Assembly (NCBI GenBank): GCA_002840845.1
Contig: PHCS01000020.1
Coordinates: 1 to 39,487, forward strand
DNA: 39,487 bases
Direction: 5' to 3'
Origin: Betaproteobacteria bacterium HGW-Betaproteobacteria-14
Lineage (GTDB): Bacteria > Pseudomonadota > Gammaproteobacteria > Burkholderiales > Rhodocyclaceae
A model generated the notes under the pieces. That model was not told the DNA's origin. It did no database searches and worked only from the letters and a program-made list of their open reading frames with translations. Positions 4,716 to 39,413 of the stretch are shown here, piece by piece. How positions within the stretch are numbered: the first letter of the stretch is position 1; every line of letters starts with the position of its first letter. The translations under genes were made by a program, and so were the position numbers.

Positions 4716-6551
4716 TCATGGCCTGGCGCCCCCGCGCTGCGAAGTCCATGCCAGCGTCCACGCCACCGACCACGGCGGCAACGTGCCCGCCGCAAGGTCC
4801 GCTTCGGCCAGGTGATCGCTCAGGTAGAGCGTGTCGCCCGGCGGCGGCGCGGCCTGCGCCGGTGCGTTGCCGAGATTGGCGAGCAGGGCGAGGCGGCTGC
4901 CGTCGCCCATGCGCCAGTGGGCCGAGAGCACGTGTTGCGACGGCAGCGCAAAGCTGCCCGCGTCGCCTTGCATGCCGCGCAGGCGCGGCACGATCTCGTC
5001 GCGGCGCAGCGCCAGCAGCTGCCGGTGCAGGGCCAGCATGCGCGCATGCGGCGCGCGATCCACGGCGTCCCAGTCGAGCACGCAGGCCGTGAAGGTGGCA
5101 GCATCGTTCGGGTCGGGGATGCGCGCCTGCGCCGCCGGATCGGCGAAGCGCGCGAACTCGCGGCGCCGGCCCTGCGTCACCGCATCCGCCAGCTCCGGGC
5201 CGAAGTCGCAGAAGAAGAGGAAGGGCTGCGCCGCGGCGAATTCCTCGCCCATGAAAAGCATCGGCGGCTGCGGCGCCAGCAGCAGGACGGCGGTGAGGGC
5301 CTCCAGCGCCGCCGGCTCGACAAGGTGGCAGAGGCGCTCGCCGAAGGCGCGGTTGCCGACCTGGTCGTGCGTCTGCAGGAAATCGACGAAGGCGCCCGGC
5401 GGCAAGGCGCGGCTCGGCTCGCCGCGCACCTCGCCGTCGCGGAAGGGCGAGGGGTCGCCCTGGAAGGCAAAGCCTTCGGTGAGGCAGCGGCCGAGCTGCG
5501 CCAGCGGCGCCTCGGCGTAGTCGGCGTAATAGCCGTCCCGCTCGCCGGTCGCCAACACGTGCGCCGCGTGGTGGATGTCGTCGTTCCACTGCGCCGTGGC
5601 GAGGCGCGGATGACCTTCTGCGTCGCGCGGCAGGTAGCGCGACTGGTTCTTGTCGTTCTCCAGGATGAGATGGATCAGGCGTTCGCGGCCGGGGCCGGCG
5701 CGCACGGCCGCGCAAAGCGACTCGACGATGTCGGGCTGCGAGTCGTCGCGGATGGCGTGGATGGCGTCGAGGCGCAGGCCGTCGAAATGGAACTCCTCCA
5801 GCCAGTAGAGTGCGTTGTGGATGAAGAAGTCGCGCACGACCTCGCTGCCCGGGGCGTCGAAGTTGATCGCCGCGCCCCACGGCGTGGTGTGCAGCGGATT
5901 GAAGAACGTCGGCGCGTAGGCGTGCAGGTAGTTGCCCTCCGGGCCGAAGTGGTTGTAGACGACGTCGAGCAGCATCATGAGGCCGCGCGCGTGCGCCTCC
6001 TGCACCAGCATCTTGAGGTCCTCGGGGCGGCCGTAGGCGGCGTCCGGCGCGAAGGGCAGCACGCCGTCGTAGCCCCAGTTGCGCCGGCCGGGGAAGTCGG
6101 CCACCGGCATCAGTTCGAGGGCGGTGACGCCGAGTTCGGCGAGGTCGTCGAGGCGGCGGCGGATGCCGTCATAGTTGCCGCTGCGGGAGAAGCAGCCGGT
6201 GTGCAATTCGTAGATCACCGCCTCTTCCCAGCATCGCCCGCGCCAGGCGTCGTCGCGCCAGGCGAAGGCCTGCGGGTCGATGACTTCGCTGGCGCCGTGG
6301 ATGTCGTCGGGATTGAAGCGCGAGGCAGGATCGGGCACGCGCAGGTCGCCGTCGATGAGGTAGCAGTAGCGCGTGCCGGCGCCGGCTGCGTCGAGCCGTG
6401 CCTCGTGCCAGCCGTCGTCGCCGCGGGCGAGCGGAATCCGCTTGCCGTTCAGTTCGACGTCGACCTGGCCGGCGGTCGGGGCCCAGAGGCGGAAGCGCGT
6501 GGCGCCGTCCTCGATCTGCGCGCCGAAGGGCATGTCGTGCCGCCGTATCAC
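4716..6551 (-). CDS. treZ: malto-oligosyltrehalose trehalohydrolase TreZ
   Basis: The product hydrolyses the bond next to the trehalosyl end of maltooligosyltrehalose and frees trehalose, directly after TreY. It has 611 residues, normal for TreZ. An N-terminal beta-sandwich domain (about 10-100, [17 protein letters not shown]) precedes a GH13 barrel with the nucleophile D262 in [10 protein letters not shown], acid/base E298 in LILENDKN and the stabilising D396 in LQTHDQVGN. The GTG at 6551 overlaps the glgX stop as GTGA, which suggests translational coupling; an ATG at 6533 is possible. A copy of the bipartite repeat spans the start region (6541-6565). Confidence 0.93.
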
Positions 6552-6565
6552 GGCGACTGACTTTC
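6541..6565 (+). repeat. bipartite motif copy 1
   Basis: CGCCGT, 10 bases, CTGACTTT. Spans the glgX stop and the treZ start. It matches the copy at 38983-39007 at 23 of 25 positions. Confidence 0.75.
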
Positions 6566-8680
6566 CATGAGCAATACCAGAGAGCGGCCCTGCAGCTCAT
6601 AGCCGTTGTCGCCGGCATAGCAGCCGTCTGCCGCCAGGCCGGCCATGTACTGCGTGTCGAGCAGCACCTGCCAGCAGCCGCCCTGCGGCAGCTCTGGCAG
6701 CGCGAAATGCAGGGCCTCGTGGTGGGCATTGAAGAGCACGATGAAGTTGTCGTCGCGGATCGGACGGCCGCGCCGGTCCCGCTCCTGCAGGGCGTCGCCG
6801 GAGAGGTACATGCCGAGGCTGCGGGCGAAATCGTGCTCCCACTCGTAATCGCTCATCTCCGAGCCGTCGGGTTTGAGCCAGCGGATGTCCTTGATGTCCG
6901 CGCCGTGGATGCGCTTGCCCTGCAGGAAATGGCGCCGGTGGAAGACCGGATGCTCGCGGCGCAGGCGGATCACGCGCTGCACGAAGGCCAGCAGCTCGCG
7001 ATCATCCTGAGACAGGTCCCAGTCGAGCCAGGTCAGTTCGCTGTCCTGGCAGTAGGCGTTGTTGTTGCCGGACTGGCTGTGGCCGAGTTCGTCGCCCGCC
7101 AGCAGCATCGGCACGCCCTGCGAGAAGAGCAGGGTGGCGAGCAGGTTGCGCTTCTGGCGGGCGCGCAGCGTCCGGATGGCGGCATCGTCGGTGGGTCCCT
7201 CTACGCCGCAATTCCAGGACAGGTTGTTGTCGTTGCCGTCGCGGTTGTCCTCGCCGTTGGCCTCGTTGTGCTTGCCGTTGTAGCTCACCAGGTCGTGCAG
7301 CGTGAAGCCGTCATGGGCGGTAACGAAGTTTACGCTGGCGTAGGGCTTGCGGCTGGTGTGCTCGTAGAGGTCGCTCGAGCCGGTGAGCCGCGTGGCGAAC
7401 TCGCCGATGAGGCCGCCATCGCCCTTCCAGTAGGCGCGCACGGTGTCGCGATAGCGGTCGTTCCATTCGGCCCAGCCGACGGGGAAGTTGCCGACCTGAT
7501 AGCCGCCTTCGCCGAGGTCCCACGGCTCGGCGATCAGCTTCACCTGCGACAGCACCGGATCCTGGTGCAGGATGTCGAAGAAGGCGCCGAGGCGGTCCAC
7601 ATCGTGCAGTTCGCGCGCCAGCGCTGAGGCCAGGTCGAAGCGGAAGCCGTCGACGTGCATGTCGAGCACCCAGTAGCGCAGCGAGTCCATGATCATCTGC
7701 AGCACGCGCGGGTGCTGCAGGTTGAGCGTGTTGCCGCAGCCGGTGAAATCCATGTAGAAGCGCGGATCGTCCGGCATGAGGCGATAGTAGGCGGCGTTGT
7801 CGATGCCGCGGAAGGACAGCGTCGGCCCCATGTGGTTGCCTTCGGCGGTGTGGTTGTACACCACGTCGAGGATGACCTCGATGCCGGCCGAATGCAGCGT
7901 CTTCACCATGGTCTTGAATTCACCCACGACGCCGCTGGCGCTGTAGCGATGGTCGGGCGCGAAGAAGCCGATGGAGTTGTAGCCCCAGTAATTGCTTAAT
8001 CCCTTCTCGACCAGGTGCCGGTCGTCGACGAAGGCATGCACCGGCATCAGCTCGACGGTGGTGACGCCGAGCTGCTTGAGGTGTTCGATCACCGGCCCGG
8101 TGGCGATGCCGCCGTAGGTGCCGCGTAGTTGTTGCGGCACCTCGGGATGGCGCATGGTGAGACCGCGCACGTGCAACTCGTAAATCACCATGTCGTGCCA
8201 GGGGATGCGCGGCGAGCGGTCGTCGCCCCAGGAGAAGGCCGGATCGATGACGCGGCACTTCGGCATGCCGGCGGCGTTGTCGCGCCGGTCGAAGGAGAGG
8301 TCCTCGTTGCGATGCCCGATGCGATAGCCGAAGTGCGAATCGCTCCAGCGCAGGTTGCCGACGATATCCTTGGCGTAGGGTTCGAGCAGCAGCTTGTTGG
8401 GGTTGAAGCGGTGGCCGCGCGCCGGGTCGTAGGGGCCGTAAACCCGGTAGCCGTAGAGCAGGCCCGGACGGGCATCGGGCAGGTAGCAGTGCCAGACCTG
8501 GTCGGTGTGCTCGCGCAGTTCGATGCGCTGCAGTTCGCGCCGCCCCGTCGGGTCGAACAGGCACAGCTCGACTTTTTCGGCATGCTCGGAGAACAGTGCG
8601 AAGTTCACGCCTTCGCCGTCCCAGGTGGCACCGCGCGGATAGGGGTTGCCGGGCCAGACGGCGTTGAGGATGTTTGCCAT
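6548..8680 (-). CDS. glgX: glycogen debranching enzyme GlgX
   Basis: Isoamylase-type GH13 enzyme that cleaves alpha-1,6 branches, mainly short stubs on glycogen limit dextrin. It has 710 residues. A CBM48-like N-terminal domain (about 10-110) is followed by the catalytic barrel: [13 protein letters not shown] (269-281), nucleophile D349 in [10 protein letters not shown]385 in [10 protein letters not shown]457 in TAHDGFTL. The start [11 protein letters not shown] at 8680 is supported by homology; the open frame continues upstream through glgC in the wrong frame, so the longer reading (to 10012) is not a GlgC-GlgX fusion. The start lies 11 bases after the glgC stop, with only a weak AACGGA-like ribosome site. 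Confidence 0.94.
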
Positions 8681-21235: not shown

Positions 21236-23041
21236 ATGCATATACGAGACTCAATAATGAGATTTTCCCCGGCAGTCCTATTTCCGGCGCACATGCTCGC
21301 CGTAGTGCAGCGGCTGACTTTTGCCGCATTGCTGGGGGTGTTCCTGGGCAGTGTCACGGCCGGTCACGCCGAGCCATTCCGCTACGAGCTCGTGCTGCAG
21401 GCGCCCGAGGCGGTGACCCCGATGCTGGAGCAGCACCTGGATGTCGCCCGCTGGCGCGACAATTCGCGCATGTCGCTGTCGCAGTTGCGCGTGGCGCATC
21501 GCGAGGCCGGGCGGCAGATCGCAGACCTGCTTGCCACCGAAGGCTATTTTTCCCCGCGCATCGAGGCCGTCCTCGACGAATCCGGCGCGGTGCCGACGGC
21601 GCGCTACAAGATCGATGCGGGGCCGCGCGCACGCGTCGCCGCCGTCGAGCTCGTCCTGGCCGGGGAGGACGCCGCAGCCGCCGACGCCATGGCGCAGGCG
21701 CGCGAGGACTGGTCGCTGCCCGTCGGCCAGCCCTTCCGCCAGGCCGACTGGGACGAGGCCAAGCGCGCGCTGCTGCAACGCTTCATCGCCGAGCGCTACG
21801 CCACCGCGCGCATCGCGTCGAGCCGCGCCGACGTCGACCCGGCGCAGGCGCAGGTTCGATTGCGCGTCGAGATCGACAGCGGCGCGTCGCACGCCTTCGG
21901 CGAACTGAACATCAGCGGCCTGCAGCGCTATCCCGAGCACATCGTGCGCCGCCTCAGCCCGATCCAGCCGGGCGATCCCTATTCCCTGGCGCAGGTGCTG
22001 AAGTTCCAGACGCGCCTGCAGGACAGCGGCTATTTCGAAAGCGTCGAGGTCCAGGCCGTGCCGCAGCCCGGCCGGCCCGAGGCGGTGCCGGTGACGGTCG
22101 CCCTGCGCGAGGCGAAGAGCAGCAAGGTCGGCCTCGGCGTCGGCTTCAGCACCAACACCGGCGCGCGCGGCCAGCTCGCCTACGACGACCACAACCTGCT
22201 CGATCGCGGCTGGCGCCTGCGCAGCGCGCTCTCCATCGAGCAGAAGCAGCAGTCGCTCGGCCTCGACATCGGCTTGCCGATCAGCGCAGAGGGCTGGCGC
22301 GACAGCTTCGGCGCCACCCTGCTGCGCAGCGACGTGCAGAACGAGACTACCGGCAGCCTGGGCCTGCGCGCCCGCCGCGCCTGGGGCAGCGAGCGCACCG
22401 AGCACGCCATGCGCATCGAATACCTCGCTGAAACCCGGCGCGTCGAAGGCTTCGGCGAGAGCAGCAGTTCCGCCATGACCTTCGGCTACTCGCTGACCCT
22501 GCGCCGGGTGGACACGCCGAGTTTCCCCAGCCGCGGCTATCTCGCCGGCATCGACCTCGACACGGCGCCGCTGTCCGCATTGGCCGACACGCCCTTCGTG
22601 CGCGCGCGCGGCCGCCTCTCGCACTTCACGCCGCTGGGCGAGCGCGGCACGCTGATCCTGCGCGGCGAACTGGGCGCCGTCTTTGCCAGCCGCCGCCAGG
22701 GCATCCCGCAGGCCTTCCTCTTCCGTGCCGGCGGCGACCAGTCGGTGCGCGGCTATGCCTACCAGAGCATCGGCGTCAAGGAAGGCCGCGCCATCGTCGG
22801 CGGGCGCTACCTCGCCCTTGGCAGCGCCGAGTACGTGCACTGGCTCGACAGGAAATGGGGCGCCGCCGTCTTCCTCGACGCCGGCACCGCCGTCGACGAC
22901 CTGGATCGGCGCAAGCTCTACGCCGGCTACGGCGTCGGCGTGCGCTGGAAGAGCCCGGTCGGCCCCTTGAGCGTCGACCTGGCGCGCGGCCACGACACCG
23001 GCAAGTTCCGCCTGCACTTTTCCGTGGGCTTCGCCTTCTGA
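21236..23041 (+). CDS. tamA: TamA-like Omp85 family outer membrane assembly protein
   Basis: Outer-membrane subunit of the translocation and assembly module. It has up to 601 residues: a signal peptide (hydrophobic stretch RLTFAALLGVFLGSVTAGHA, cleavage probably before EPFRYEL), POTRA domains (about 45-280, including SHAFGELNISGLQRYPEHIVRRLS) and a C-terminal 16-strand barrel with the RAGGDQSVRGYAYQSIG motif of Omp85 proteins and a final Phe (HFSVGFAF). Start is uncertain: ATG 21236 gives an extra N-terminus, while ATG 21257 or 21293 puts the signal peptide nearer the start. tamB follows with a one-base overlap. Bipartite repeat copy at 21298-21322. Confidence 0.9.
   Translation: MHIRDSIMRFSPAVLFPAHMLAVVQRLTFAALLGVFLGSVTAGHAEPFRYELVLQAPEAVTPMLEQHLDVARWRDNSRMSLSQLRVAHREAGRQIADLLATEGYFSPRIEAVLDESGAVPTARYKIDAGPRARVAAVELVLAGEDAAAADAMAQAREDWSLPVGQPFRQADWDEAKRALLQRFIAERYATARIASSRADVDPAQAQVRLRVEIDSGASHAFGELNISGLQRYPEHIVRRLSPIQPGDPYSLAQVLKFQTRLQDSGYFESVEVQAVPQPGRPEAVPVTVALREAKSSKVGLGVGFSTNTGARGQLAYDDHNLLDRGWRLRSALSIEQKQQSLGLDIGLPISAEGWRDSFGATLLRSDVQNETTGSLGLRARRAWGSERTEHAMRIEYLAETRRVEGFGESSSSAMTFGYSLTLRRVDTPSFPSRGYLAGIDLDTAPLSALADTPFVRARGRLSHFTPLGERGTLILRGELGAVFASRRQGIPQAFLFRAGGDQSVRGYAYQSIGVKEGRAIVGGRYLALGSAEYVHWLDRKWGAAVFLDAGTAVDDLDRRKLYAGYGVGVRWKSPVGPLSVDLARGHDTGKFRLHFSVGFAF
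21298..21322 (+). repeat. bipartite motif copy 2
   Basis: CGCCGT, 10 bases, CTGACTTT, within the signal-peptide coding part of tamA. It matches copy 6 at 20 of 25 positions. Confidence 0.65.
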
Positions 23042-26000
23042 TGCGGCCCCTGCGCATCCTCTCGCTGGCGTTCTTCGCGCTGCTCGCCATCGCCGCCGCC
23101 GTGCTGGGGTGGCTGACTTTCAGCGAAGCCGCGCCGCGCTGGTTGGCGCAGGTGGCGAGCGAGCGTTCCGCAGGACGGCTGACGATCGAGGGCGTCGATG
23201 GCCGCCTGCTCGGGCCGCTGCGCGCCGCGCGCATCGCCTGGCGCGATGCCGGCACGACGGTCGAGGTCGACCAGGCCGTCGTCGAATGGACACCCGGCGC
23301 ATTGCTGGGCGGCCGCATCGCGGTCCGCCGCCTCACGGCAAAGCGCATCGACGTCGCGCTCGCCGCCGCATCGGACGCGCCGCTCCGGCTGCCGCCCTCG
23401 CTGGAGCTGCCGCTGCCCCTGCGCGTGGACGCGGTCGAGGTCGCGGAGATCATGATCCGGCCGCACGCCGGGGCGCAGCCGGAGAAGGTCGGCGGGCTGC
23501 GCTTCGCCCTCACCGCGGGGCGCGATGCCTGGCAGGTGGCCGGCCTGCGCCTGCAGTACCGCGCGTGGACGCTGGGCGGCAATGCCAGCCTGGCCGCGCA
23601 GGCGCCCTTCGGCGTCGAGGGTGCCTTCGACCTCGACGGCAAGCTGGAAGGCATCGAGCTCAAGGCCCGGCTGGCCGTGACGGGCATCCTCGAAGCGCTG
23701 CAACTGAAGGCGACGGCGCAAGCCGCGCAGTCCACCGCGACGGTGACGGCCATGCTGAGGCCCCTCGACGCGCAGCCGCTGCGCGAAGTGAAGGCGCAGC
23801 TCGCCGGCCTGAATCCCGCGCAATGGCAGAAGGGCGCGCCGCAGGCGGACATCGGCGTCGACCTCGCCGTGGCGCTGGACGCCGCCGGCAGCCTGCGCGG
23901 CGAATACGCGCTTGCCAACGCACAGCCGGGCGCGCTCGACGCCAAAAAGCTTCCCCTCGCCGCCGGACGCGGCGCCTTCAGCGGCCGCCTTGGCGAACTG
24001 CAGTTCGACGCGCTGGCGGCGGACCTGGCCGGCGGCGGAAAACTCTCCGGCACCGGCCGCATTCAGGCGGGGCGGATGGAACTCGCGCTGAAGGCGGCGC
24101 GCGTCGACCTGAGCGCGGTGTCCTCCGCGCTCCTGCAAACCCGGCTCGACGGCGACTTGTCCCTGAGCGTGGTGCCGGAAGCCGACGCGCCGGCCCTGCA
24201 GGCCACCTTCGATTTGCGCGACAGCCGCAACCATGCCAAACCCATCCACGGCAAGGGCAGCGTCGAGCTGCGCGGCCGCCGTCTCGCACAGGCTGACTTT
24301 ACGCTGCGCCTCGCCGACAACACCCTGCAGGCGGCGGGTCGCCTCGGCGAGCCGGGCGACAGCCTGACGTGGCGCCTCGACGCGCCGCGCCTCGACGCGC
24401 TCGGCCCCGGCTTCGGCGGCCGCCTGCAAGCGTCGGGCACGCTCACCGGGCGCTACGACGACCCGGCGCTCGCGTTCGAGCTGAACGGGCGTCGCCTGGC
24501 ATTCCCCGGCGGCCACGCCTTCGGCGCCGTCGAGGCCAGCGGCCGCCTCAAGGCCGGTGCCGACGACGCCCTGCGGCTCGACGCGCGCGCCGACGACATC
24601 GCCAGCGGCGGCCAGAAGCTGAAGGCCTTGCGCCTGCAGGCTTCCGGCACGCGGCGCCGCAACGACATCGACCTCACGCTCGACGTGGCCGGCTCGCGCA
24701 TCGTGGCGGCCCTCTCCGGCAGCTATGCCGAGGGCGCCTGGAAGGGCCGCCTGAACAAGCTCGACGGCAGCGGCCGCCACGCCTTCGCGCTGCGCGCGCC
24801 GGCCGAACTGGCGGTGTCGGCGCAGCGCCAGAGCGCGCGCGGCCTGCAACTGGATTTCACCGGCGGCGCGTTCACGCTGGAAGTCGTCGAACACGAACAG
24901 GGCCGCCTGAAGAGCGCCGGCGCGGCGCAGGGTGTGCCGCTGGCGTGGCTGCTGCCCGACGCAACGGCGCAGGCCGTGGCGTCCACCGTCACGCTCGGCG
25001 CGCAATGGTCGCTCGCCGCCGGGCAGTCGGTCGACGGCAGCGCGCGGCTCTGGCGCGAGCAGGGCGATGTCCGCGTCTGGCCCGAGGCCGGCCCGGCGCT
25101 CGGCTTGCAGCAGGCCGAGGCGCAACTGCGCGCCGCCGATGGCCGCCTCAGCGGCACGCTGGTGCTGCGCGGCAGCGAGTTGGGCCGTCTCGATGTCGAA
25201 GCCGAGGCCGGCCTCGCGCAAAGCCAGGGGCGCTGGGGCATTGCGGCGGACGCGCCGCTGCAGATGCGCGCGCGGGGCGCCATGCCGGACCTGGCCTGGC
25301 TCGCCCGACTGGCGCCGCGGCTCGGGCTGGAGAGCGCGGGCAGCCTCGAACTCGATGCGCGCGCGTCAGGCACGCCGCGCCGGCCGCAGCTCTCCGGCGC
25401 GCTGCGCGGCGCGGCCCTGGCCCTGCGCATGCCGACCGAGGGCGTCGACCTCCACGAAGGCGTGCTCGAGGTGCAGTTCGATGCCGACCGCATCGCGCTG
25501 TCGCGCTTTACCCTGAAGGGCGGCGAAGGCAGCCTCACCGCGCAGGGCGAGATGACGCTGGGTGAAGCGGCGCGGCCGGCGCAGGCCACGCTGCGCCTCG
25601 ACCGCCTGCAACTGGTGTCGCAGCCGGAGCGCCAGCTGATCCTCAGCGGGGAGACGAAACTGGACTGGTCCGAGGCCGGCGCCGTGCTGGCCGGAAAACT
25701 GCGCGCCGACCGCGGCCTGATCGTGTTGCCCGAAGCCGGCACGCCCGTGCTGGGCGAAGACGTCGTCGTCGCCGGTCGCGAAAAACCGCAGGAGGACGGC
25801 CGTCCACCGGTCAAGGCCAAGATCGACCTCGCGCTCGACCTCGGCGACGATTTCCGCGTGCGCGGCAGCGGCCTCGACGCGCGGCTCGCCGGCGAGCTGC
25901 GCCTGCGCGCCACGCACGACACCTCGCCGACGGCGCACGGCAGCATCCGCGTCGCCGCGGGCAGCTACAGCGCCTACGGCCAGAAGCTCGCCATCGAGCG

Positions 26001-27225: not shown

Positions 27226-27250
27226 GAAAGTCAGTCGCTGGAATACGGCG
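27226..27250 (-). repeat. bipartite motif copy 5 (inverted), left island border
   Basis: The only copy on the minus strand. It is intergenic, between the methyltransferase and hicA, and matches copy 6 at 24 of 25 positions. Confidence 0.78.
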
Positions 27251-28542: not shown

Positions 28543-28561
28543 TCGTTGTGCCTTTCTATGG

Positions 28562-28590: not shown

Positions 28591-28606
28591 GGTGCGCGAG
28601 GCCTAA

Positions 28607-30216: not shown

Positions 30217-30279
30217 CGCTCCTGGCAATGCGGCAGTTTCCTGCTGTGTGACCGTGTACACAAACATTCTTACACCCCC
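29945..30279 (-). mobile_element. truncated IS256-family element (5' end only)
   Basis: Contains the start of an IS256-family transposase and, at its upstream end on the minus strand, a GGGTGTAAGAATGTTTGTGT terminus (about 30258-30277) that looks like an IS256-type inverted-repeat end. The exact outer boundary is uncertain by a few bases. The downstream part is missing beyond the IS5 junction at 29945. Confidence 0.75.
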
Positions 30280-30526: not shown

Positions 30527-30739
30527 TTCGGCAGCCTGGCGCCGGACCGGCACCCGGCGTTGCTGCACGTCGCCACCATCGAAAGCATCGGCTCGTCCAC
30601 CCGCATCGAGGACCGTCGGCTGTCGGACCGTGAAATCGAATGCCTGCTGTCCAGCCTTCTGATCAAGTCCTTCACGACCCGCGAAGAACAGGAGGTGGCG
30701 GGCTACGCCAAGGTCATGGAACCGGTCTTCTCGTCCTAG
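30527..30739 (+). pseudogene. Fic family protein, N-terminal fragment
   Basis: A 70-codon frame, FGSLAPDRHPALLHVATIE then SIGSSTRIEDRRLSDREIE, then FTTREEQEVAGYAKVMEPVF, ending in TAG. The SSTRIEG-like inhibitory helix motif (here SSTRIED) and REEQEVAGYA are typical of the N-terminal region of Fic AMP-transferase proteins; the catalytic HxFxxGNGR motif is absent. It has no own start and is fused out of frame to the integrase fragment, so it is a leftover. Confidence 0.75.
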
Positions 30740-30850
30740 CCGGATATCGCGCTGACCGAGAACTCTGGAGCAGTCAGTCCGATTGGCACTTGAGGATATC
30801 AGCTTTTCGCCAGTGATCTTGAGGAAGAATGCTTGGAACGCCGATGGCAT
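30740..30850. other. junction between mobile-element debris and the ABC cluster
   Basis: 111 bases with no recognisable gene, terminator or repeat. The end of the ABC permease gene on the minus strand is at 30851. No T-tract hairpin is visible for that operon. Confidence 0.4.
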
Positions 30851-32430: not shown

Positions 32431-32431
32431 A

Positions 32432-33457
32432 CTACAGTGCCTTTGCCCAGACGACGCGATTGAGATCGATGGGCTCGGTTATGAGCTTGTTTCGCAACGC
32501 GTAGTCATGGATGGCCTTCAGTGCCACACGGTTCAGGCGCACGCTGATCTGCAGCATATCCGACTTGAGCCAAGAGCGCAGGATCTGTTGAGCGTTGGCG
32601 ATCCCGGTCAGCGGAATGTGCTTGCTGTAGATGGCAACCACTTCGTCGAAATTAGCTGGGTCTTTCATCCATTTCTCGGTATCCAGCATCGCCCGTTGTA
32701 GCGCATCCAGGACCTTGGGATTGGCCTCGATGTAATCGCGACGCATCCACATTGGCACTGAGGCCCCGATCATTTCGCGAATAGCAGGCGGGCCCTCACC
32801 GCGGGAGAGGTCGAGTACAGTAGTGCACGTCTTGCCAACGTTACACATGTCGGCAAGAGGCGGGAAATTGATCATGGCATCGATGGTCTTGCCGACCACG
32901 AGCGCCGGGTAGCCTGTATTGGGTGCACCCACAGCGACGATGGTCACGTCGGTCGGCTTGAGCCCGGCAAGGTTGAGCAGTTCGACAAGGTGCAGTTCGG
33001 CTCCGCTGCCTCTCGACGGCACGCCGATCTTGAGACCTTTGAGTCCCTTGAGCGCGGCCATCGAGTTACCTTCCCCCTTCGGCAGAGAGATATCGTTGCG
33101 TACCACCAGTGCGTACGGCTGGGATCCGTAGCCGCCCATCACAACCTGAATGTCGGCACCCTTGGCGATGCCGCCGAATGCGACTTCGGGAACGAACATC
33201 CCCACTTCCATAGACTTGCCGAGCAGCGTCTGAAGTGCCATCGGCCCAGAGGTCACGGTGACCAGTTGGCACTTTATGCCATAGGTATCACAAAAGCCTT
33301 TTTCGACTGCAATCTGGGCGTGCATGTTGCCAACCGTTCCGGGATATTGACCAAGGCGGATGACCGGCTTGCTGTCCTGCGCAACCGCCGAGAACGGCAG
33401 TAGTACGGATGCCATGATGACAGCGGCCATTGCGATGAATCTCTGATTGATTTTCAT
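32432..33457 (-). CDS. ABC transporter substrate-binding protein, NMT1/THI5-like
   Basis: A 341-residue periplasmic protein. The signal peptide is about 26 residues (KINQRFIAMAAVIMASVLL then PFSAVA before QDSK). The mature part has the two-lobed NitT/TauT layout: IRLGQYPGTVGNMHAQIAVEKGF, ALQTLLGKSMEVGMF, LKGLKIGVPSRGSGAEL, and PALVVGKTIDAMINFPP. Ligand unknown; the family binds sulfonates, nitrate, thiamine precursors and aromatic acids. GGAGG lies about 10 bases before ATG 33457. Encoded 63 bases downstream of tetR, probably in the same transcript. Confidence 0.9.
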   Translation of the reverse strand: MKINQRFIAMAAVIMASVLLPFSAVAQDSKPVIRLGQYPGTVGNMHAQIAVEKGFCDTYGIKCQLVTVTSGPMALQTLLGKSMEVGMFVPEVAFGGIAKGADIQVVMGGYGSQPYALVVRNDISLPKGEGNSMAALKGLKGLKIGVPSRGSGAELHLVELLNLAGLKPTDVTIVAVGAPNTGYPALVVGKTIDAMINFPPLADMCNVGKTCTTVLDLSRGEGPPAIREMIGASVPMWMRRDYIEANPKVLDALQRAMLDTEKWMKDPANFDEVVAIYSKHIPLTGIANAQQILRSWLKSDMLQISVRLNRVALKAIHDYALRNKLITEPIDLNRVVWAKAL

Positions 33458-33520
33458 TTCCTCTTCTCCTCCAAGAGTGTTGCGATCAAGATTGCGTGAG
33501 ATACCGCGCCTGGCCGTCGA

Positions 33521-34288
33521 TCATCGGATGCGGCGCTTGCTGTTGCTCGGTTTGGTGCCAGCCCGGCGCAGGTGCTTTTCCTTCGCCAAGGCTTCCGCGG
33601 TGTCGCTGGAAATGGGCACGTCGATGGCCGCGCTGACCATGTCTATCAATTGCTCGACGGCGCGGTTGAGCGGAAATGGCTGCTCCGTAGCGCTTCGTTC
33701 TCCGACCAGTCGCTCCATCGACGCCAACGAGTAGATGACGAAGTCGACAACAATGGCATAGCGCTGGCGGAAGAGTGCTGGAGGCACGTGCTTGATCCGG
33801 GCCTGCAGGATTGCTTCAAACTTGATCAGCGCGGCGCCGAAGTGCTTGAGCCAGAGCTCGCGCAGCTCCGGGTTGCCGGACAGCGTTGCCTGCGCCAGGA
33901 AACGGTTGTAGTGATAACCAGAGCCTTCCGCCAGCAGAATCTCGAGTTGCGGACGGATAAGTGCAGCCACCAGCGACCTAATCGAAATAGGCCTGCTATC
34001 GGCTGTTAGCGCTTCCAGTAGTTGGCGACGCCGTGTGTCGAGGCGGGCGGCGCGCATTTCAAAGATGCCTTCGATGATGGCCTCACGCGAACCGAAGTGG
34101 TAATGGATCGCCGAAGCATTCTTCTGGTTGGCGTGCCGATTGATTTCTCGCAACGACACACCCTCGATGCCGTGGCGTGCGAAAAGTTGTTCCGCGGTAC
34201 GCAGCAGCGCCTCTCTCGTCGATAGAGACTGGCCATCGACCTCGTCAGCGTTTGACGCGATGCGTTTGGATGAAAGCTTGGTTACCAA
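33521..34288 (-). CDS. TetR/AcrR family transcriptional regulator
   Basis: About 255 residues. The N-terminal helix-turn-helix is STREALLRTAEQLFARHGIEG-VSLREINRHANQKNASAIHYHFGSREAIIEGIFE; the C-terminal ligand domain has no recognisable specificity. I prefer the TTG start at 34288: GGGGGT lies 7 bases upstream, and the only upstream ATG (34336) is inside the palindrome and upstream of the predicted transcription start. It probably binds the 45-bp palindrome and controls both the ABC unit downstream of it and the divergent catabolic genes. Confidence 0.85.
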   Translation of the reverse strand: MVTKLSSKRIASNADEVDGQSLSTREALLRTAEQLFARHGIEGVSLREINRHANQKNASAIHYHFGSREAIIEGIFEMRAARLDTRRRQLLEALTADSRPISIRSLVAALIRPQLEILLAEGSGYHYNRFLAQATLSGNPELRELWLKHFGAALIKFEAILQARIKHVPPALFRQRYAIVVDFVIYSLASMERLVGERSATEQPFPLNRAVEQLIDMVSAAIDVPISSDTAEALAKEKHLRRAGTKPSNSKRRIR

Positions 34289-34330
34289 AAGATTACCCCC
34301 GGTTGACGATGCTAGGGAAACGATTAAAGC

Positions 34331-34375
34331 ACACATTAATTCAGTTGACTTAGTAAGTCAACTGAATTAATGTGT
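34331..34375. promoter_or_regulatory. 45-bp perfect palindrome with mirrored divergent promoters (TetR operator)
   Basis: 22-bp arms (34331-34352 and 34354-34375) are exact inverted repeats around one G. Rightward: TTGACT (34345-34350), 17 bases, TAATGT (34368-34373). By symmetry, leftward: TTGACT (34361-34356), 17 bases, TAATGT (34338-34333). The core TTGACTTAGTAAGTCAA has the size of a TetR site. A bound repressor would shut both overlapping promoters at once. Confidence 0.75.
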
Positions 34376-34456
34376 TCGCTGATCGCAGCCCGCCAAACTT
34401 ATGCGGACTCGACTGCGCACGGGCTGGAATCTAACTTTAGACATGGAGAACCGGAC

Positions 34457-35338
34457 ATGAAACCGAATCTGCTATCAACTGACAAAGTGATCATTACCGT
34501 CGCCATTACCGGCGGACTGCATGGCAAGGAGGCGAATCCCAATCTACCGACGAGCGCCGAGGAACAGGCGCAGGCGGCGTACGACGCCTACAACGCCGGC
34601 GCCTCGATCGTGCACATCCACGTCCGCGACGAGCAGGGGATCAATACTCCGTCGCTCGACTACTACAACAAGACGGTACGCCTGATTGGCGAGCGTTCCC
34701 CGCTGATCCGGCAGATCGGCAACGGCATTGGCATGCGGGCCAAAACGCCTGGCGCTAAGCCGACGTCGGCGAGCCTAGAAGAGCGCATGAACCTGCTCAA
34801 TATCACGCCTCGGCCGGAAATGATGACGGTGAACGCCGGCAGCTTCGAGTTTCGCAGTCCGGTCGGCAACGACATTTTCGACAACAGCCTCGAGTTCAAC
34901 AGGCAATTTATCGATGGCTGCCGTACCAAGGGATACGGGTTGGAACTAGAGGTCTACGACCCGAGCCACATCGCCAACATGGTGGAACTGCATGAGCGCG
35001 GGGTGCTCGAGTCTCCGATGCACTTCAGCATCGTACTCGGTATCAAGGGTGGAGCACCGGCCAGCGTCAGCAACCTGACGCACATGGTGAGTGAGTTGCC
35101 GGACGACTCGGGCTGGCAGGTGGTTACTGTCGGCCGCTACCACTTCCGCTCCAATGCCATGGCGCTGGCCATGGGCGGCAACGTGCGCACTGGCATGGAA
35201 GATACAGTATTCATCGACAAGGCCACTCCAGTGACAAGCAACGCGCAATTGGTCGAGCGCATGGTGGCACTGGCGCGCGCCATGGGCCGTGAGCCGGCTA
35301 CCGTCGAAGAGGCGCGCGCGGCGGTCGGCATTCGTTAA
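34457..35338 (+). CDS. 3-keto-5-aminohexanoate cleavage family enzyme (BKACE, DUF849)
   Basis: A 293-residue TIM-barrel enzyme of the family that cleaves beta-keto acids with acetyl-CoA to acetoacetate (or an analogue) and a new acyl-CoA. Metal ligands are visible as H53 and H55 in IVHIHVRDEQG and E248 in GGNVRTGMEDT. The His usual before VR in GGHVRVGLED is Asn here. VNAGSFEFRSP and FSIVLGIKGGAPAS are further family stretches. ATG 34457 has GGAG 8 bases upstream; the frame opens at 34370 but that part has no homology. Substrate unknown; neighbouring dehydrogenases could make the keto acid. Confidence 0.9.
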   Translation: MKPNLLSTDKVIITVAITGGLHGKEANPNLPTSAEEQAQAAYDAYNAGASIVHIHVRDEQGINTPSLDYYNKTVRLIGERSPLIRQIGNGIGMRAKTPGAKPTSASLEERMNLLNITPRPEMMTVNAGSFEFRSPVGNDIFDNSLEFNRQFIDGCRTKGYGLELEVYDPSHIANMVELHERGVLESPMHFSIVLGIKGGAPASVSNLTHMVSELPDDSGWQVVTVGRYHFRSNAMALAMGGNVRTGMEDTVFIDKATPVTSNAQLVERMVALARAMGREPATVEEARAAVGIR

Positions 35339-35370
35339 GTCGCGATTATGGCATTCAGGGGGAACAGGTA

Positions 35371-36165
35371 ATGGCGGAACATAGCAAAAGGCGGCTGGCG
35401 GACAAGGTTGCGGTGGTAACCGGTGCGGCCAGCGGCATCGGACGGCAGATCGCATTGGCCATGGCCGCCGAGGGAGCGATTGTTGGCATTGCCGATATCA
35501 ACGCCGGTGGTGCTCAAGACGTAGAGGGGGAGATTCGCAAGGCCGGGGGTCGCGCCGAGGCCATCCACATGGATGTCCGGATAGAGCGTATGGTGGATGA
35601 CGGGATCAACGGCTTCGCCGCTAAGCATGGACGCCTCGATGTAGCCGTTGCCAACGCCGGCATACAGCATCTGGACACGATAGCCGATGTCTCCTTTGAA
35701 CATTGGAAGGACATGCTTGCCGTCCACTTGGATGGCAGCTTTCTCACGGCGTGCGCTGCCCTACGTTACATGGTTCCGGCGAAGCGAGGCAGCATCATCT
35801 TCATGGGCTCCATTCATTCCTACATGGCGTCGGAAAAGAAAGGTCCTTATGTGGCGGCCAAGCACGGCATTGTCGGCTTGTGTCGGGCGATCGCTAAGGA
35901 AAACGGCCGACACGGCATACGCGCCAATACCATCTGTCCTGGATTTGTCCGCACGCCGCTGATCGAATTTCAACTGCCACTGCTGGCCAAGGAGCGAGGT
36001 GTCAGCGAAGAGGAGGTGGTGCAGGGCTTCTTGCGTTACACGGTAGACGGCGAGTACACGACCATGGCGGAACTAGCCGAGCTGGCTGTGTTTCTAGCCG
36101 CATTCCCGACCAACCTTTTCAACGGACAGTCGATTGGCGCCAGCCATGGCATCCATATGCTTTAG
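35371..36165 (+). CDS. short-chain dehydrogenase, 3-hydroxybutyrate dehydrogenase-like
   Basis: A 264-residue NAD(P)-dependent SDR: cofactor loop TGAASGIG (17-24), N95 in ANAG, catalytic S147, Y160 and K164 (YVAAK). The stretch CPGFVRTPLIEFQLPLLAKERGVSEEEVV matches the substrate-lid region of 3-hydroxybutyrate dehydrogenases, and the C-terminus SIGASHGIHML is a variant of their DGGWTAQ end. ATG 35371 follows GGGGAA, 32 bases after the BKACE gene. It may oxidise a beta-hydroxy acid to the BKACE substrate or reduce acetoacetate. Confidence 0.87.
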   Translation: MAEHSKRRLADKVAVVTGAASGIGRQIALAMAAEGAIVGIADINAGGAQDVEGEIRKAGGRAEAIHMDVRIERMVDDGINGFAAKHGRLDVAVANAGIQHLDTIADVSFEHWKDMLAVHLDGSFLTACAALRYMVPAKRGSIIFMGSIHSYMASEKKGPYVAAKHGIVGLCRAIAKENGRHGIRANTICPGFVRTPLIEFQLPLLAKERGVSEEEVVQGFLRYTVDGEYTTMAELAELAVFLAAFPTNLFNGQSIGASHGIHML

Positions 36166-36188
36166 GCCGCAGGCCAGAGAGACGACGA

Positions 36189-36938
36189 GTGCAAGAGGAA
36201 CCAACCGGGAGAGTAGTGGTCGTCACCGGAGCGGCCCGCGGCATAGGTGCCTGTATCTCCCACCGTTTTGTGGATGAAGGCTGCTCCGTCTACGTCACCG
36301 ATATCGACCTAGAAGGCTCGGGCGCCCAATGTTCGCTCCTGGGGCCGAAGGCGATCGCTCGTAAGATGGACGTGTGCGATCGAAGCGAAGTTAGGGCCAT
36401 CATCGCAGGCATCCAGCGCGAAGCGGGTGGTATCGACGTGCTGGTGAACAACGCTGGGCTGATGACCACGGGACCGTCTATGGCGACGACCGATTCCGAG
36501 TGGGACGATCTGCTTTCCGTGAATGTCGGGGGCATCTACAACTGTATTCATGCCGCTGCACCCCACATGCTGAGGCGAAAGCAGGGCGTCGTTATCAACA
36601 TCGCTTCGATCTCGGCGTACAAGGGCGGCGGCACATTTGGCAATGTCTGGTACGGCGCCACCAAAGCCGCTGTGATAGCCATTACCAAAGGGCTTGCCCG
36701 TGAGTTCGGTAAGCATGGGGTTCGCGTCAACGCCATCGCACCAAGCGTCGTCGAAACAGAGATGGTCAAGACGTTACTCAGCCTCGATATTCGAGCCCAG
36801 ATACTGCCACGCTTTCCCCTAGGCAGGCTAGCGACCACCGACGACATCGCGAGCCTGGCAGTGTTTCTAGCGTCTGACCAGGCCTCGTTCATCACGGGCG
36901 AAACGGTTGCCGTCGACGGTGGACTGCTGAAAACATGA
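36189..36938 (+). CDS. short-chain dehydrogenase/reductase
   Basis: A 249-residue classical SDR: TGAARGIG (13-20), NNAG (87-90), catalytic S142, Y155 and K159 (YGATK) and a normal C-terminus ITGETVAVDGGLL. D38 or D40 at the end of the second strand (VTDID) suggests NAD rather than NADP. GTG start, 23 bases after the previous gene. Substrate unknown. Two different SDRs beside a BKACE enzyme suggest successive oxidations of a hydroxylated acid. Confidence 0.87.
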   Translation: MQEEPTGRVVVVTGAARGIGACISHRFVDEGCSVYVTDIDLEGSGAQCSLLGPKAIARKMDVCDRSEVRAIIAGIQREAGGIDVLVNNAGLMTTGPSMATTDSEWDDLLSVNVGGIYNCIHAAAPHMLRRKQGVVINIASISAYKGGGTFGNVWYGATKAAVIAITKGLAREFGKHGVRVNAIAPSVVETEMVKTLLSLDIRAQILPRFPLGRLATTDDIASLAVFLASDQASFITGETVAVDGGLLKT

Positions 36939-36947
36939 CCCCAAGCT

Positions 36948-38030
36948 ATGCTGCCGGTACGTGATCTCCTGCTAACTCTGGTTGTGGTGTTGACTTGGGG
37001 TGTCAGCTTCACGGTCATCAAGCTGGTACTGAACGATGTGCCGCCGATGTTAATGGGAGCATTGCGTTTCCTGCTGTCGGCGTTTCCTGCAATTTTCCTC
37101 GTGCCCAGACCACGAATCATGCTGCGCTGGTGGTGGGCATATGGAATGACAGTAGGGGTGGGCCAGTTGGCGTTGCTCTTTGTCGCTATTCGTTTGGGCA
37201 TGCCTGCCGGCGCCGCCTCAGTGATCCTTCAGTCACAGTCTTTCTTCACCTTGATCTTTGCCGCGCTTCTGCTCGGTGAGCGCTGGCACTGGCCGCAATT
37301 CGCCGGCCTGACCGTAGCCGCTGTCGGTATCGCCATGCTGGCTGGGGCCGCCGAGACGGCCACCTCGACCATCACCCTGCGGACATTCGCGCTAACGCTC
37401 GGGGCGGCTGCATTCTGGGGTCTATCTAACGTCATCGTGCGCTTGGCCGCCGACAGTATGCCGCCGGGAGAACACCTCGACCCATTGGCCTTCCTTGTCT
37501 GGACCAGTCTGATTCCTCCGCTTCCCTTCACGGCTCTGTCACTGTGGTTCGACGGCCCGCATGCTATTGCCTATGCTTTGGGGCATTTCAGTTGGGGATC
37601 TCTGGCGGGCGTGGCGTACTTGGCGTTCGGTGGCACATTGCTCGGGTCTGGCATCTTCACGGCGCTACTAACGCGGCATCCGAGCGGGCGAGTCGCGCCT
37701 TTCACTCTCCTAGTTCCCCTAGTTGGATTGGCGACAGCGTCTCTGGTTCTTGGCGAGCGGTTGGTATTGGTGCAATGGGTGGGTTGCTCGCTGGTTTTGT
37801 TTGGACTTGTCGTTAACATGTTCGGTGCATCGGAAAGAAGCTACTGGCTTGAACCTAAGGGCTGTCAAAGTAGTCCTATTGCGCTTCCATCCTGCAATTT
37901 GGACAAAGGAAATGGATCAGCGAATATTGGGGTGTTTACAGTGCTCGCGGTGAATGATCGCTTATCAAATCTGACTATTTCCGCTTTGGGCACGAAACCG
38001 TCAAGCTCGCCACCGGAGAGCGGCCATTGA
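36948..38030 (+). CDS. EamA/DMT family transporter with an unusual C-terminal extension
   Basis: A 360-residue inner-membrane protein with ten hydrophobic helices in two EamA repeats (TWGVSFTVIKLVLNDVPPMLMGALRF; second repeat FWGLSNVIVRLAADSM). Family members are usually about 300 residues and would end near VGCSLVLFGLVVNMFGASER (residue 300, base about 37848). The remaining 60 residues (YWLEPKGCQSSPIALPS...) are polar, Ser/Pro-rich and without resemblance to the family. They may be read-through into foreign sequence after a recombination. Last gene of the plus-strand unit, 9 bases after the SDR; role would be export or uptake of a small metabolite. Confidence 0.83.
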   Translation: MLPVRDLLLTLVVVLTWGVSFTVIKLVLNDVPPMLMGALRFLLSAFPAIFLVPRPRIMLRWWWAYGMTVGVGQLALLFVAIRLGMPAGAASVILQSQSFFTLIFAALLLGERWHWPQFAGLTVAAVGIAMLAGAAETATSTITLRTFALTLGAAAFWGLSNVIVRLAADSMPPGEHLDPLAFLVWTSLIPPLPFTALSLWFDGPHAIAYALGHFSWGSLAGVAYLAFGGTLLGSGIFTALLTRHPSGRVAPFTLLVPLVGLATASLVLGERLVLVQWVGCSLVLFGLVVNMFGASERSYWLEPKGCQSSPIALPSCNLDKGNGSANIGVFTVLAVNDRLSNLTISALGTKPSSSPPESGH

Positions 38031-38066
38031 ACCAATCTCCAGCCTGCGCCCAATCCTCAATCCGAG

Positions 38067-38777
38067 ATGACTCTCGCCGATGCGGCTTGTGGAAGAGACA
38101 GGTTCACGGCCTTCCTCATTCAGAACTATGGCAAATCCATTGGATACAAGGCGGCGCTTACGAATCCGGCGTTACAGAAATTCCTCAACTATCCAAACCC
38201 AGTGCGAGGAACGCTGTTTGGGAAGATGCTCCATAATGGGGTGGTAGTACCCGCCAGTTTCGCGTCGCAGCCCCGCTTTGAAGCCGACATAGTCGTGGAA
38301 GTAGCGAACGATGCCATCAATCAAGCAACGACGACGCTCGAAGCCTTGCTACACATTTCGCGTATTTATCCATTTATCGAACTGCCGGACATGATCGTGG
38401 AGAATCCCCGAAATCTCACGGGTCCGAACTTGGTGTACTTGAACGCCGGTGCAAGGCTCGGTGTCCTCGGCAAGCCATTTGAGGTGAAGGCAACACCTGA
38501 ATTGGTAGAGGCGCTCGCAAACATGACGGTGAGGCTTGCCGATCAGGATGGAAAGGAACTTGAAGCGAGTAAAGGTACTGCAATCCTTGGGCAACCGTTT
38601 AACGCCGTTCTATGGCTTGTCAAGGATTTGAAGGCAAGCGGCATTCGTCTCAAGAAGGGTGACCTGCTCAGCCTCGGCTCCTTTTCGGGACCGCAACCGC
38701 CAAAGCCCGGAACTGGAGTAAAGGTGACCTACGAAGGTCTGCCTGGAACTCCAACGGTAAGCGTTCGGTTCAAGTGA
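38067..38777 (+). CDS. 2-keto-4-pentenoate hydratase-like protein, probably N-terminally truncated
   Basis: A 236-residue protein of the MhpD/fumarylacetoacetase-related family: SIGYKAALTNPALQKFL, PVRGTLFGKML, FEADIVVEV, PFIELPDMIVENP, NAGARLGVLG, LGQPFNAVLWLVKDL, LGSFSGPQPPKPG and YEGLPGTPTVSVRFK. Relatives carry about 40-50 more residues before the TLADAxxxxxRF stretch that here begins the frame, and there is no clear ribosome site before ATG 38067. The missing part is not visible upstream in any frame. Likely the remnant of an island or core gene cut by a recombination; it might still fold. Confidence 0.7.
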   Translation: MTLADAACGRDRFTAFLIQNYGKSIGYKAALTNPALQKFLNYPNPVRGTLFGKMLHNGVVVPASFASQPRFEADIVVEVANDAINQATTTLEALLHISRIYPFIELPDMIVENPRNLTGPNLVYLNAGARLGVLGKPFEVKATPELVEALANMTVRLADQDGKELEASKGTAILGQPFNAVLWLVKDLKASGIRLKKGDLLSLGSFSGPQPPKPGTGVKVTYEGLPGTPTVSVRFK

Positions 38778-39053
38778 TAGGCGGCAGAGCCTGCAATCTG
38801 TGCGCGGCGCGGATGGATTGAGAGCGTCGGCTTTTTGAATCAGGCTACTTCCGCTTCACGCCCTGAGGCAGCTCTTCCGTTGGCTTAACGCCTCAACGGC
38901 AGCAACCTGCCGGAAAAGGCCATTCACCTGACCCGAGGCCAACGGCGGCAATGGCCGATAACCCGCCTTGGCATACCCACCGCGCCGTATCCCAGCGACT
39001 GACTTTCCCCGGCGCCTTGCTATAGTTCCACAAAGCATCATCAAGGCCGCGCC
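38778..39053. other. 276-base intergenic region at the right island border
   Basis: Holds a bipartite-repeat copy (38983-39007) and returns to the GC-rich composition of the core. No gene, tRNA or terminator with a T-tract is recognisable. Confidence 0.4.
38983..39007 (+). repeat. bipartite motif copy 6, right island border
   Basis: Intergenic, 46 bases upstream of the TPR gene. CGCCGT, spacer ATCCCAGCGA, CTGACTTT, then C. With copy 5 it forms an inverted pair around 11.7 kb. Confidence 0.78.
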
Positions 39054-39401
39054 ATGACCACCCTCGACAATCTGCTCAAGCTCGTCGGCACGCCGCGCGA
39101 CGGGGCGCTGCTGCGCTTTTCGCTGGGCAGCGAGTACCTGAAGGCGGGGGAGGCGGCGCAGGCGGCGGTGCAGTTCCGTGCGGCGGTGGAAAAAGACCCG
39201 AAGTACTCGGCGGCGTGGAAGCTGCTCGGCAAGTCGCTGGCCGAGGCGGGGCAGGCGGAGGCGGCGCTGGCGGCCTACCGCGAGGGCATCGCGGTGGCGG
39301 AGGCCAAGGGCGACCTCCAGGCGGCGAAGGAGATGAAGGTCTTTGCGCGGCGGCTGGAGCGCGACGCGGCGGGCGGCAAGGACTCCGGCGCCGTCTCGTA
39401 G
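39054..39401 (+). CDS. small TPR-repeat protein
   Basis: A 115-residue, helix-rich cytoplasmic protein with two to three tetratricopeptide repeats: LLRFSLGSEYLKAGEAAQAAVQFRAAVEKDPKYSAAWKLLGKSLAEAGQAEAALAAYREGIAVAEAKGD (about 20-88, interpretable as A/B helix pairs with the W-LG-A-Y-P pattern). Such proteins act as binding platforms; the partner is unknown. It is high-GC like the core region. The stop lies inside a bipartite-repeat copy. Confidence 0.85.
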   Translation: MTTLDNLLKLVGTPRDGALLRFSLGSEYLKAGEAAQAAVQFRAAVEKDPKYSAAWKLLGKSLAEAGQAEAALAAYREGIAVAEAKGDLQAAKEMKVFARRLERDAAGGKDSGAVS

Positions 39402-39413
39402 GGACTGACTTTT
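39389..39413 (+). repeat. bipartite motif copy 7
   Basis: CGCCGT, 10 bases, CTGACTTT, spanning the stop codon of the TPR gene. It matches copy 6 at 20 of 25 positions. Confidence 0.65.

What the first reader, a model, noticed from the sequence alone, without database searches (positions are those of the whole stretch)
6541..39413. Unrecognised bipartite DNA motif CGCCGT-N10-CTGACTTT, seven copies with fixed spacing
By eye, every CTGACTTT I found in the window, on either strand, is preceded by CGCCGT at exactly the same distance (6541, 21298, 23097, 24277, 38983, 39389 on plus; 27226-27250 on minus). The spacer always ends in G then A/G, giving CGCCGT-N8-GR-CTGACTTT. Copies lie in genes of both strands, in different reading frames, across start and stop codons and in intergenic DNA, so the constraint is on DNA, not on protein. 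Six of seven point the same way. Fixed half-sites with a variable spacer suggest a site read by a protein, such as an uptake signal, a replichore-polar motif like Chi or KOPS, a nucleoid or restriction site, or else a very short mobile repeat. I know of no described element with this form.
Basis: seen in the sequence. Interest (0 to 1): 0.8.

Follow-up and report, generated by a model that had tools for sequence, protein, structure and literature searches.

The report
Self-DNA tag in Rhodocyclaceae genomes
Hundreds of copies of a strictly spaced 25-letter DNA word mark the chromosomes of one group of environmental bacteria in several dialects, and look like a label by which cells recognise DNA of their own kind, something so far described in only two other bacterial families.

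Summary
All 7 CTGACTTT in the window carry CGCCGT exactly 10 bases upstream. The window's genome has 349 copies (175/174 by strand; reversed-pattern control 0); 13 of 16 genomes of its genus have 146-433. A genus member is Candidatus Desulfobacillus denitrificans. The motif is about 25 bp with a partly constrained spacer. Related genera carry dialects: CGCCGT-NYCGCCAGCR-CCGACTTTT and CGGCGT-NYCGCCAYGR-CTGACTTT. Outside the family, dialects A and B are nearly absent from 386 sampled genomes of the order.

Sites are unpolarised (57:48, p 0.44), evenly spread, enriched between genes and depleted in GC-poor DNA. They are often kept at the same gene position in relatives and arise by substitution, not as a 24-bp insertion. 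These are sequence hallmarks of DNA uptake sequences (DUS/USS), known from Neisseriaceae and Pasteurellaceae; the motif matches neither.

I read it as a third uptake-specificity system (about 0.6). Missing: any uptake experiment, a receptor, and a recognisable short ComEA in 16 of 17 carriers tested. Chi/KOPS and mobile-repeat readings are not supported.

The parts
6541..6564 (+). motif copy, CGCCGT-ATCACGGCGA-CTGACTTT; straddles the end of the minus-strand gene called at 6548-8680 (glgX by family match)
21298..21321 (+). motif copy inside the start of a tamA-like gene (Omp85/POTRA), preferred reading frame, peptide MLAVVQRLTF
23097..23120 (+). motif copy inside tamB, preferred reading frame, peptide AVLGWLTF
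24277..24300 (+). motif copy inside tamB, another frame, peptide RRLAQADF
27227..27250 (-). motif copy in DNA without a called gene, beside a methyltransferase gene (26544-27164)
38983..39006 (+). motif copy in DNA without a called gene
39389..39412 (+). motif copy straddling the stop codon of the gene called at 39054-39401

Best explanation
The motif is a DNA uptake sequence: a self-DNA tag of about 25 bp, read as double-stranded DNA by a surface receptor of a natural-transformation machine, so that cells of these species preferentially take up and recombine DNA of their own group. Biased uptake then makes the tag accumulate: any allele that mutates to a perfect tag is taken up more often and replaces untagged alleles. 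That would explain a very strong consensus, positions tolerated by the encoded protein, both orientations, spread over the core chromosome, and clade-specific dialects. Shown here: motif, abundance, spacing, dialects, distribution, mode of origin, and presence of ComEC and type IV pilin genes. Inferred: that DNA carrying the tag is taken up preferentially, that uptake bias built the pattern, and that a pilin-like protein reads it.
For: Abundance and exact spacing. More perfect than singly mismatched copies (G000 43 vs 22; G002 105 vs 43), a pattern that Redfield et al. 2006 call a puzzling attribute shared by USS and DUS (PMC1626085, passages). Equal strands, no polarity, even spread. Intergenic and gene-end enrichment with strong frame preference inside genes. 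Fixed positions 99.1% identical in 16 conserved orthologous pairs against 81% in the spacer and 81% in flanks (where one pair was counted twice); no gap inside the site in 23 unbiased pairs. At least three dialects within one family, as in Frye et al. 2013 for DUS (PMC3630211, abstract and sections 6 and 11). Depletion in the GC-poorest fifth (8 of 105 sites in G002). ComEC in 30 of 30 family genomes tested; type IV pilin genes.
Against: No uptake or transformation test exists here. ComEC, and a minor pilin of the Pfam DUS-receptor family PF16732, are equally present in genomes without the motif. With TIGR00426 a short open frame (ComEA-like) was found in 1 of 17 carriers (G102) and 2 of 7 non-carriers; the others gave nothing or about 800-aa open frames; PF12836 gave the same picture in 16 genomes. 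The PilE-like, FimT-like, PilV-like and PilW proteins of the type IVa cluster are barely alike between G000 and G002 although both carry dialect A, so a ComP-like receptor there is doubtful. Density, one per 7-9 kb, is well below the about one per kb of DUS/USS (PMC1626085). Inverted pairs, common in DUS genomes, are rare here. Carriers and non-carriers occur within one genus (g19, g47, g90, g1). Some phage contigs carry dialect B sites.
Confidence: 0.6

Rival explanations
1. The motif is the site of an intracellular chromosome protein (nucleoid organiser, segregation or repair factor, a Chi-like recombination stimulator) that is not sensitive to orientation.
For: Strong positional conservation and even spread, restriction to one family with dialects, occurrence in some phages, and no complete classical competence gene set recognised.
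Against: Known Chi and KOPS are short and polarised (general knowledge); here 57:48. matS and parS sites are palindromic and regional (general knowledge); here non-palindromic and even. Most sites lie inside genes, and 14 fixed plus about 8 preferred positions is long for such factors. Dialects and an excess of perfect copies are typical of uptake sequences.
Confidence: 0.22
2. The motif is a self mark for a defence or modification system: methylated or otherwise read to spare own DNA.
For: High copy number in chromosomes; rarer in viral contigs: 34 further sites in 1.1 Mb around hits, against 42 in 240 kb of host G023.
Against: I know of no modification system that reads a 24-25 bp non-palindromic site, and a sparing mark at one per 7-9 kb would leave most DNA unmarked (recall, inference). 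No methylation data were available.
Confidence: 0.08
3. A very short mobile or copied repeat.
For: Many near-perfect copies. In comparisons across dialects (or with G009) 5 of 16 alignments had a gap inside the site (4 different sites), against 4% of control windows.
Against: In the genus 0 of 23 unbiased orthologous pairs had a gap in the site. The gaps are one to four residues long, none spans the eight residues of the motif, and they fit placement in variable segments. Flanks outside positions 1-25 share nothing.
Confidence: 0.03
4. A regulatory or terminator element acting on genes.
For: About threefold (G002: 33 against 9.9) and twofold (G000: 10 against 5.4) enrichment in intergenic DNA.
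Against: 64 of 105 (G002) and 28 of 43 (G000) sites lie inside genes, in both orientations; inverted pairs are rare.
Confidence: 0.03

Closest known systems
DNA uptake sequence (DUS) of Neisseriaceae with receptor ComP
   Same: Many near-perfect copies on both strands, in and between genes, strong consensus, dialects within one family. The pieces GCCGT and CTGA, adjacent in the canonical DUS GCCGTCTGAA, both occur in dialect A, 10 bases apart.
   Different: About 25 bp instead of 10-13; several times less dense; dialect B has CCG where all DUS dialects have CTG; few inverted pairs; receptor unknown, and the ComP-family pilin is not tied to motif presence.
Uptake signal sequence (USS) of Pasteurellaceae
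   Same: Long discontinuous motif (USS up to about 32 nt, PMC12616744, passage), more perfect than singly mismatched copies, origin by substitution, two types (Hin, Apl) within one family.
   Different: No AAGTGCGGT or ACAAGCGGT core and no AT-rich downstream segments; GC-rich spacer; lower density; different family.
Chi / KOPS / matS
   Same: Over-represented chromosomal sequences read by proteins.
   Different: No strand polarity, no regional concentration, not palindromic, much longer.

Membership tests
DUS (Neisseriaceae) | 10-12 bp motif with CTG conserved in all dialects (PMC3630211) | tested here: not met
   Dialect A has CTGA, dialect B has CCGA; motif is about 25 bp
DUS (Neisseriaceae) | Receptor ComP, a DUS-specific minor pilin | tested here: inconclusive
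   PF16732 pilin in 37 of 37 family genomes, with or without motif; poorly conserved between G000 and G002
DUS (Neisseriaceae) | Many inverted pairs, associated with terminators | tested here: not met
   Pairs closer than 400 bp: one inverted and one direct in G002, one direct in G000; two inverted pairs are visible in the listing of G013
uptake sequences in general (DUS/USS) | Strong genome-wide enrichment, both strands, perfect copies outnumber single mismatches | tested here: met
uptake sequences in general (DUS/USS) | About one copy per kb | tested here: not met
   349 in 3.23 Mb, 433 in 3.15 Mb
uptake sequences in general (DUS/USS) | Origin by point substitution, not insertion (Redfield et al. 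2006 test) | tested here: met
   0 of 23 with a gap; 5 of 16 with gaps across dialects, none of motif length
uptake sequences in general (DUS/USS) | Dialects within one family | tested here: met
uptake sequences in general (DUS/USS) | Transformation machinery (type IV pilus, ComEA, ComEC, DprA, ComM) | tested here: inconclusive
   ComEC 30 of 30, pilins present, short ComEA-like frame in 1 of 17 carriers; DprA and ComM not tested
uptake sequences in general (DUS/USS) | Preferential uptake of DNA carrying the motif | not testable with these tools
   Needs a wet experiment
USS (Pasteurellaceae) | GCGG-containing 9-mer core with two AT-rich downstream segments | tested here: not met
   Motif profile: no AT-rich downstream segment in 15 positions after the motif
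Chi / KOPS | Strand polarity relative to replication | tested here: not met
   57 leading, 48 lagging, p 0.44; up to one mismatch 84:64, p 0.12 (origin and terminus placed by GC skew of the sampled stretches)
matS / parS / Noc-type sites | Palindromic and confined to a chromosome region | tested here: not met
   Non-palindromic; counts per 20 kb stretch have mean 2.40 and variance 2.39 over 43 stretches
Mobile repeat / REP | Copies inserted as a unit, shared flanks | tested here: not met
Restriction-modification site | Few (about 4-8) specified bases, methylated | tested here: not met
   14 fixed and several preferred positions; the methylation part could not be tested

The most novel reading that the evidence does not exclude
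Rhodocyclaceae hold a third DNA-uptake-specificity system, evolved independently of DUS and USS, with a 25-bp tag in at least three dialects and a receptor that is not the ComP-type pilin of the type IVa cluster; perhaps a pilin of the MSHA-type or solitary pilin clusters that are conserved among dialect A species.
Probability: 0.5. Interest if true: 0.9.

Novelty: new variant of a known kind. Interest (0 to 1): 0.8.

Why it matters
In the papers seen, sequence-specific DNA uptake is described for two families only; Redfield et al. [quoted passage not shown] A third case in environmental bacteria (bioreactor, groundwater and lake bins) would let one ask how uptake specificity and its dialects arise, by comparison of three origins. 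It would also predict which uncultured Rhodocyclaceae exchange DNA, and give a watermark that flags foreign or misbinned contigs in metagenome bins.

Tried and rejected
Polarity: the G002 list shows plus-strand sites only for the first 924 kb; this is an ordering of the output, not polarity, as the sampled stretches show. Double counting: two of the 44 G002 stretches overlap by 8 kb, so searches count two G002 sites twice, and one search counts one orthologous pair twice; one search repeats the counts without these, and its numbers are used for G002 (no conclusion changed). Trees used wrongly read frames and are discarded; one search replaces them (G029, a long branch, left out). In one search the rows of loci lying on the minus strand were read in the wrong direction and are not used. 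Literature: no paper of the library holds both 'DNA uptake sequence' and 'Rhodocyclaceae'; searches of motif pieces as text listed papers that, by title, are unrelated (15 of 1,212 and 20 of 127 seen); dialect and uptake searches listed Neisseriaceae, Pasteurellaceae and other transformation work besides unrelated papers, none on Rhodocyclaceae by title; the Ca. D. denitrificans genome paper has no occurrence of competence, natural transformation, pili, DNA uptake or repeat (find in text). Only open-licence PMC papers were searched. Relatedness to DUS through GCCGT and CTGA was considered and left open: dialect B lacks CTG. By an order-6 Markov ranking of 8-mers the motif pieces are not at the top (GGGACTGA is the fifth pair); by base composition TGACTTTT, CTGACTTT and ACTGACTT are the top three. 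One search keeps pairs with at least 55% protein identity (23 of 25; the two dropped had 0 and 7 mismatches). None of the 23 had 2-5 mismatches, but in the larger sample one genus pair had 3 of 12. Pairs are not independent: two of the three G009 pairs concern one G009 position.
Full report
OBSERVATION. The window holds seven exact copies of CGCCGT-N10-CTGACTTT, and they are all of its CTGACTTT. CTGACTTT itself is 7 against 0.47 expected. Up to three mismatches add only two more matches (4.4 expected in all), so near misses are few. In the whole genome of the window (G000, 3.23 Mb, 104 contigs) there are 349 copies, 175 forward and 174 reverse, with none of the reversed pattern.

WHERE IT OCCURS. 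Of 60 genomes (the own one and its relatives) all 16 of the genus have a match: 13 have 146-433 copies, three have few (G009 3, G012 20, G013 42). The 20 other-genus family members and 24 other-family members have 0 or 1. The copies in G013 and G012 may be contaminant contigs: three G013 sites mirror the sequence and nearly the spacing of three G002 sites (inference). Their titles are nearly all Rhodocyclaceae, Rhodocyclales, Sulfuritalea or unclassified betaproteobacterial bins and Candidatus Desulfobacillus denitrificans (AP021857.1, 3,145,360 bp, the same length as G002). Exceptions by title are a Castellaniella genome, a Bacteroidia bin, a Gemmatimonadetes bin, a Burkholderiales bin and a Pseudomonadota bin. 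NCBI places Desulfobacillus in Betaproteobacteria incertae sedis; that the family is Rhodocyclaceae is inferred from these titles.

DIALECTS. A family scan with one mismatch allowed (199 genomes drawn from a larger group, 68 genera) shows 25 genomes with 85-642 copies, in 9 genera (g1, g2, g9, g19, g47, g62, g70, g88, g90). The reversed control never exceeds 5 on a strand, and no other genome has more than 26. Some of these genera also hold genomes without the motif (g19: G033, G117, G194; g47: G121; g90: G214; g1: G009). Sampled DNA and the listing show dialect B, CGCCGT-NYCGCCAGCR-CCGACTTTT, in g2, g9, g62, g70 and g88 and, on very few sites, g19; the dialect of g47 was not seen. With CGCCGT-N12-GACTTT it has 42 copies in 240 kb of G023 and 35 in 260 kb of G076, against 1 and 0 at spacing 11, and 0 and 0 at spacing 13. 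Genus g90 has dialect C, CGGCGT-NYCGCCAYGR-CTGACTTT (G151: 323 copies with the pattern, which also admits A and B). The window's dialect A is CGCCGT-NYYGCRGNGR-CTGACTTTY; position 16 is A in 98% of G002 sites but mostly G in G000. In 399 genomes of the order (13 of them of this family) a combined A/B pattern is found in 18 genomes; outside the family the largest counts are 7 and 3. That pattern finds only 150 of the 349 sites of G000 and not dialect C, and other dialects would be missed.

ANATOMY. In 359 kb of G000 there are 43 perfect sites, 22 with one mismatch and 10 with two, against 0, 0 and 8 for the reversed pattern. In 872 kb of G002 there are 105, 43 and 23, against 0, 0 and 7. Spacings 8, 9, 11 and 12 give no perfect site. 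One-mismatch sites concentrate at positions 3, 6 and 24. Outside positions 1-25 there is no consensus. In G002, 105 sites lie at spacing 10 and 4 at all other spacings up to 60.

DISTRIBUTION. With a simple gene caller, the 105 G002 sites are 64 inside genes, 33 intergenic and 8 across gene ends, against 92.0, 9.9 and 3.1 for random placement; G000 has 28, 10 and 5 against 36.3, 5.4 and 1.3. Inside genes 36 of 42 same-strand sites in G002 and 13 of 16 in G000 use one frame (peptide AVLxGLTF and like), and 16 of 22 and 8 of 12 opposite-strand sites another (KVSxxETA). So the DNA word is kept where its peptide is tolerated. Orientation against replication: 57 leading, 48 lagging, with origin and terminus placed by GC skew; counts per 20 kb stretch are Poisson-like (mean 2.40, variance 2.39). 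GC quintiles from low to high hold 8, 18, 19, 20 and 40 sites in G002, and 5, 1, 7, 12 and 16 in G000. In the window the 11.7 kb without sites (27251-38982) falls in a GC 0.58-0.60 stretch with IS5-like and Mutator-like transposase matches, but two sites lie at its far end.

ORIGIN AND UPKEEP. Orthologous positions were compared through protein alignments, with targets fetched without regard to the motif. There are 23 distinct site pairs at 55% identity or more: 0 with gaps inside the site, 16 with 0-1 mismatches and 7 with 6 or more. In the 16 kept pairs the 14 fixed positions are 99.1% identical and the spacer 81%; flanks are 81%. The three pairs with G009 (two positions) had lost the site. 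Across dialects no site position was shared in 10 gap-free comparisons, while two of three comparisons among dialect B genera were shared. In 16 comparisons with another dialect or with G009, 5 had gaps in the site against 4% of control windows; the gaps were one to four residues long, never the eight residues of the motif. So sites arise by substitution, often in variable segments. This is the test by which Redfield et al. (PMC1626085, section 7) concluded that USS are not insertions.

MACHINERY. ComEC is present in 15 of 16 genus genomes and in 30 of 30 family genomes tested, with and without motif. Type IV pilin genes are present. In G002 a minor pilin matches PF16732, the ComP DUS-receptor family, but so do pilins in 37 of 37 family genomes. 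Between G000 and G002 the type IVa minor pilins align only over 61-75 residues at 34-48%, while neighbouring genes are 80-94% identical. Pilins that I call MSHA-type (up to 77% over 301 residues between G000 and G002) and a solitary pilin (49-80%) are conserved over four dialect A genomes. A short ComEA-like frame was recognised in 1 of 17 carriers and 2 of 7 non-carriers (alike). A ComEC tree places the motif-poor G009 among motif-rich species with moderate support.

PHAGES. Dialect A was found in 12 and dialect B in 118 stretches of viral contigs. Of two loci scanned, both hold clear phage genes: a primase and an exonuclease, and an anti-repressor, an endolysin and a tail protein. Given one site, further sites come at about one per 32 kb (34 in 1.1 Mb), against one per 5.7-7.4 kb in hosts. 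So phages are poorer in sites but not free of them.

READING. Of the sequence features tested that mark uptake sequences, enrichment, strand balance, excess of perfect copies, origin by substitution and dialects are met; inverted pairs and a density near one per kb are not. The defining features tested for Chi, KOPS, matS and a mobile repeat are not met. The function itself is inference. I put uptake specificity at 0.6, an intracellular chromosome protein at 0.22, and the remainder on other readings.

Noticed in passing
window 21160-21235: A separate dispersed palindromic repeat (GTAGGTCGGGCTTCAGCCCGAC ... GTCGGCCTGAAGGCCGACCTAC), strong hairpin (z -6.6), with many copies in G000 and relatives; REP/BIME-like, about 60 bp upstream of a motif copy.
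   Followed up: partly
window 27500-39487: GC-poor stretch (0.58-0.60 against 0.63-0.74 elsewhere) with IS5-like and Mutator-like transposase matches; most of it lacks the motif.
   Followed up: partly
L140 (JAJVIC010000036.1, titled Bacteroidia bin) and L169 (Gemmatimonadetes bin): Contigs in bins of other phyla carry the motif (four and one perfect copies); perhaps misbinned, though no close match to held genus DNA was found.
   Followed up: partly
L361, L368 and other viral contigs: Phage contigs with dialect B sites, some inside predicted phage genes; hosts probably Rhodocyclaceae (inference). Why phages keep the word is open.
   Followed up: partly
L068 and L080, type IVa minor pilin cluster: Minor pilins and PilY1 are extremely divergent between two species whose neighbouring genes are 80-94% identical.
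   Followed up: partly
L067 12205-12942: A pilin-like gene of G002 whose start encodes a peptide of the motif's preferred frame, AVPQRLTF (seen).
   Followed up: no
G009, G012, G013: Genus members almost without the motif; loss or contamination not resolved.
   Followed up: partly
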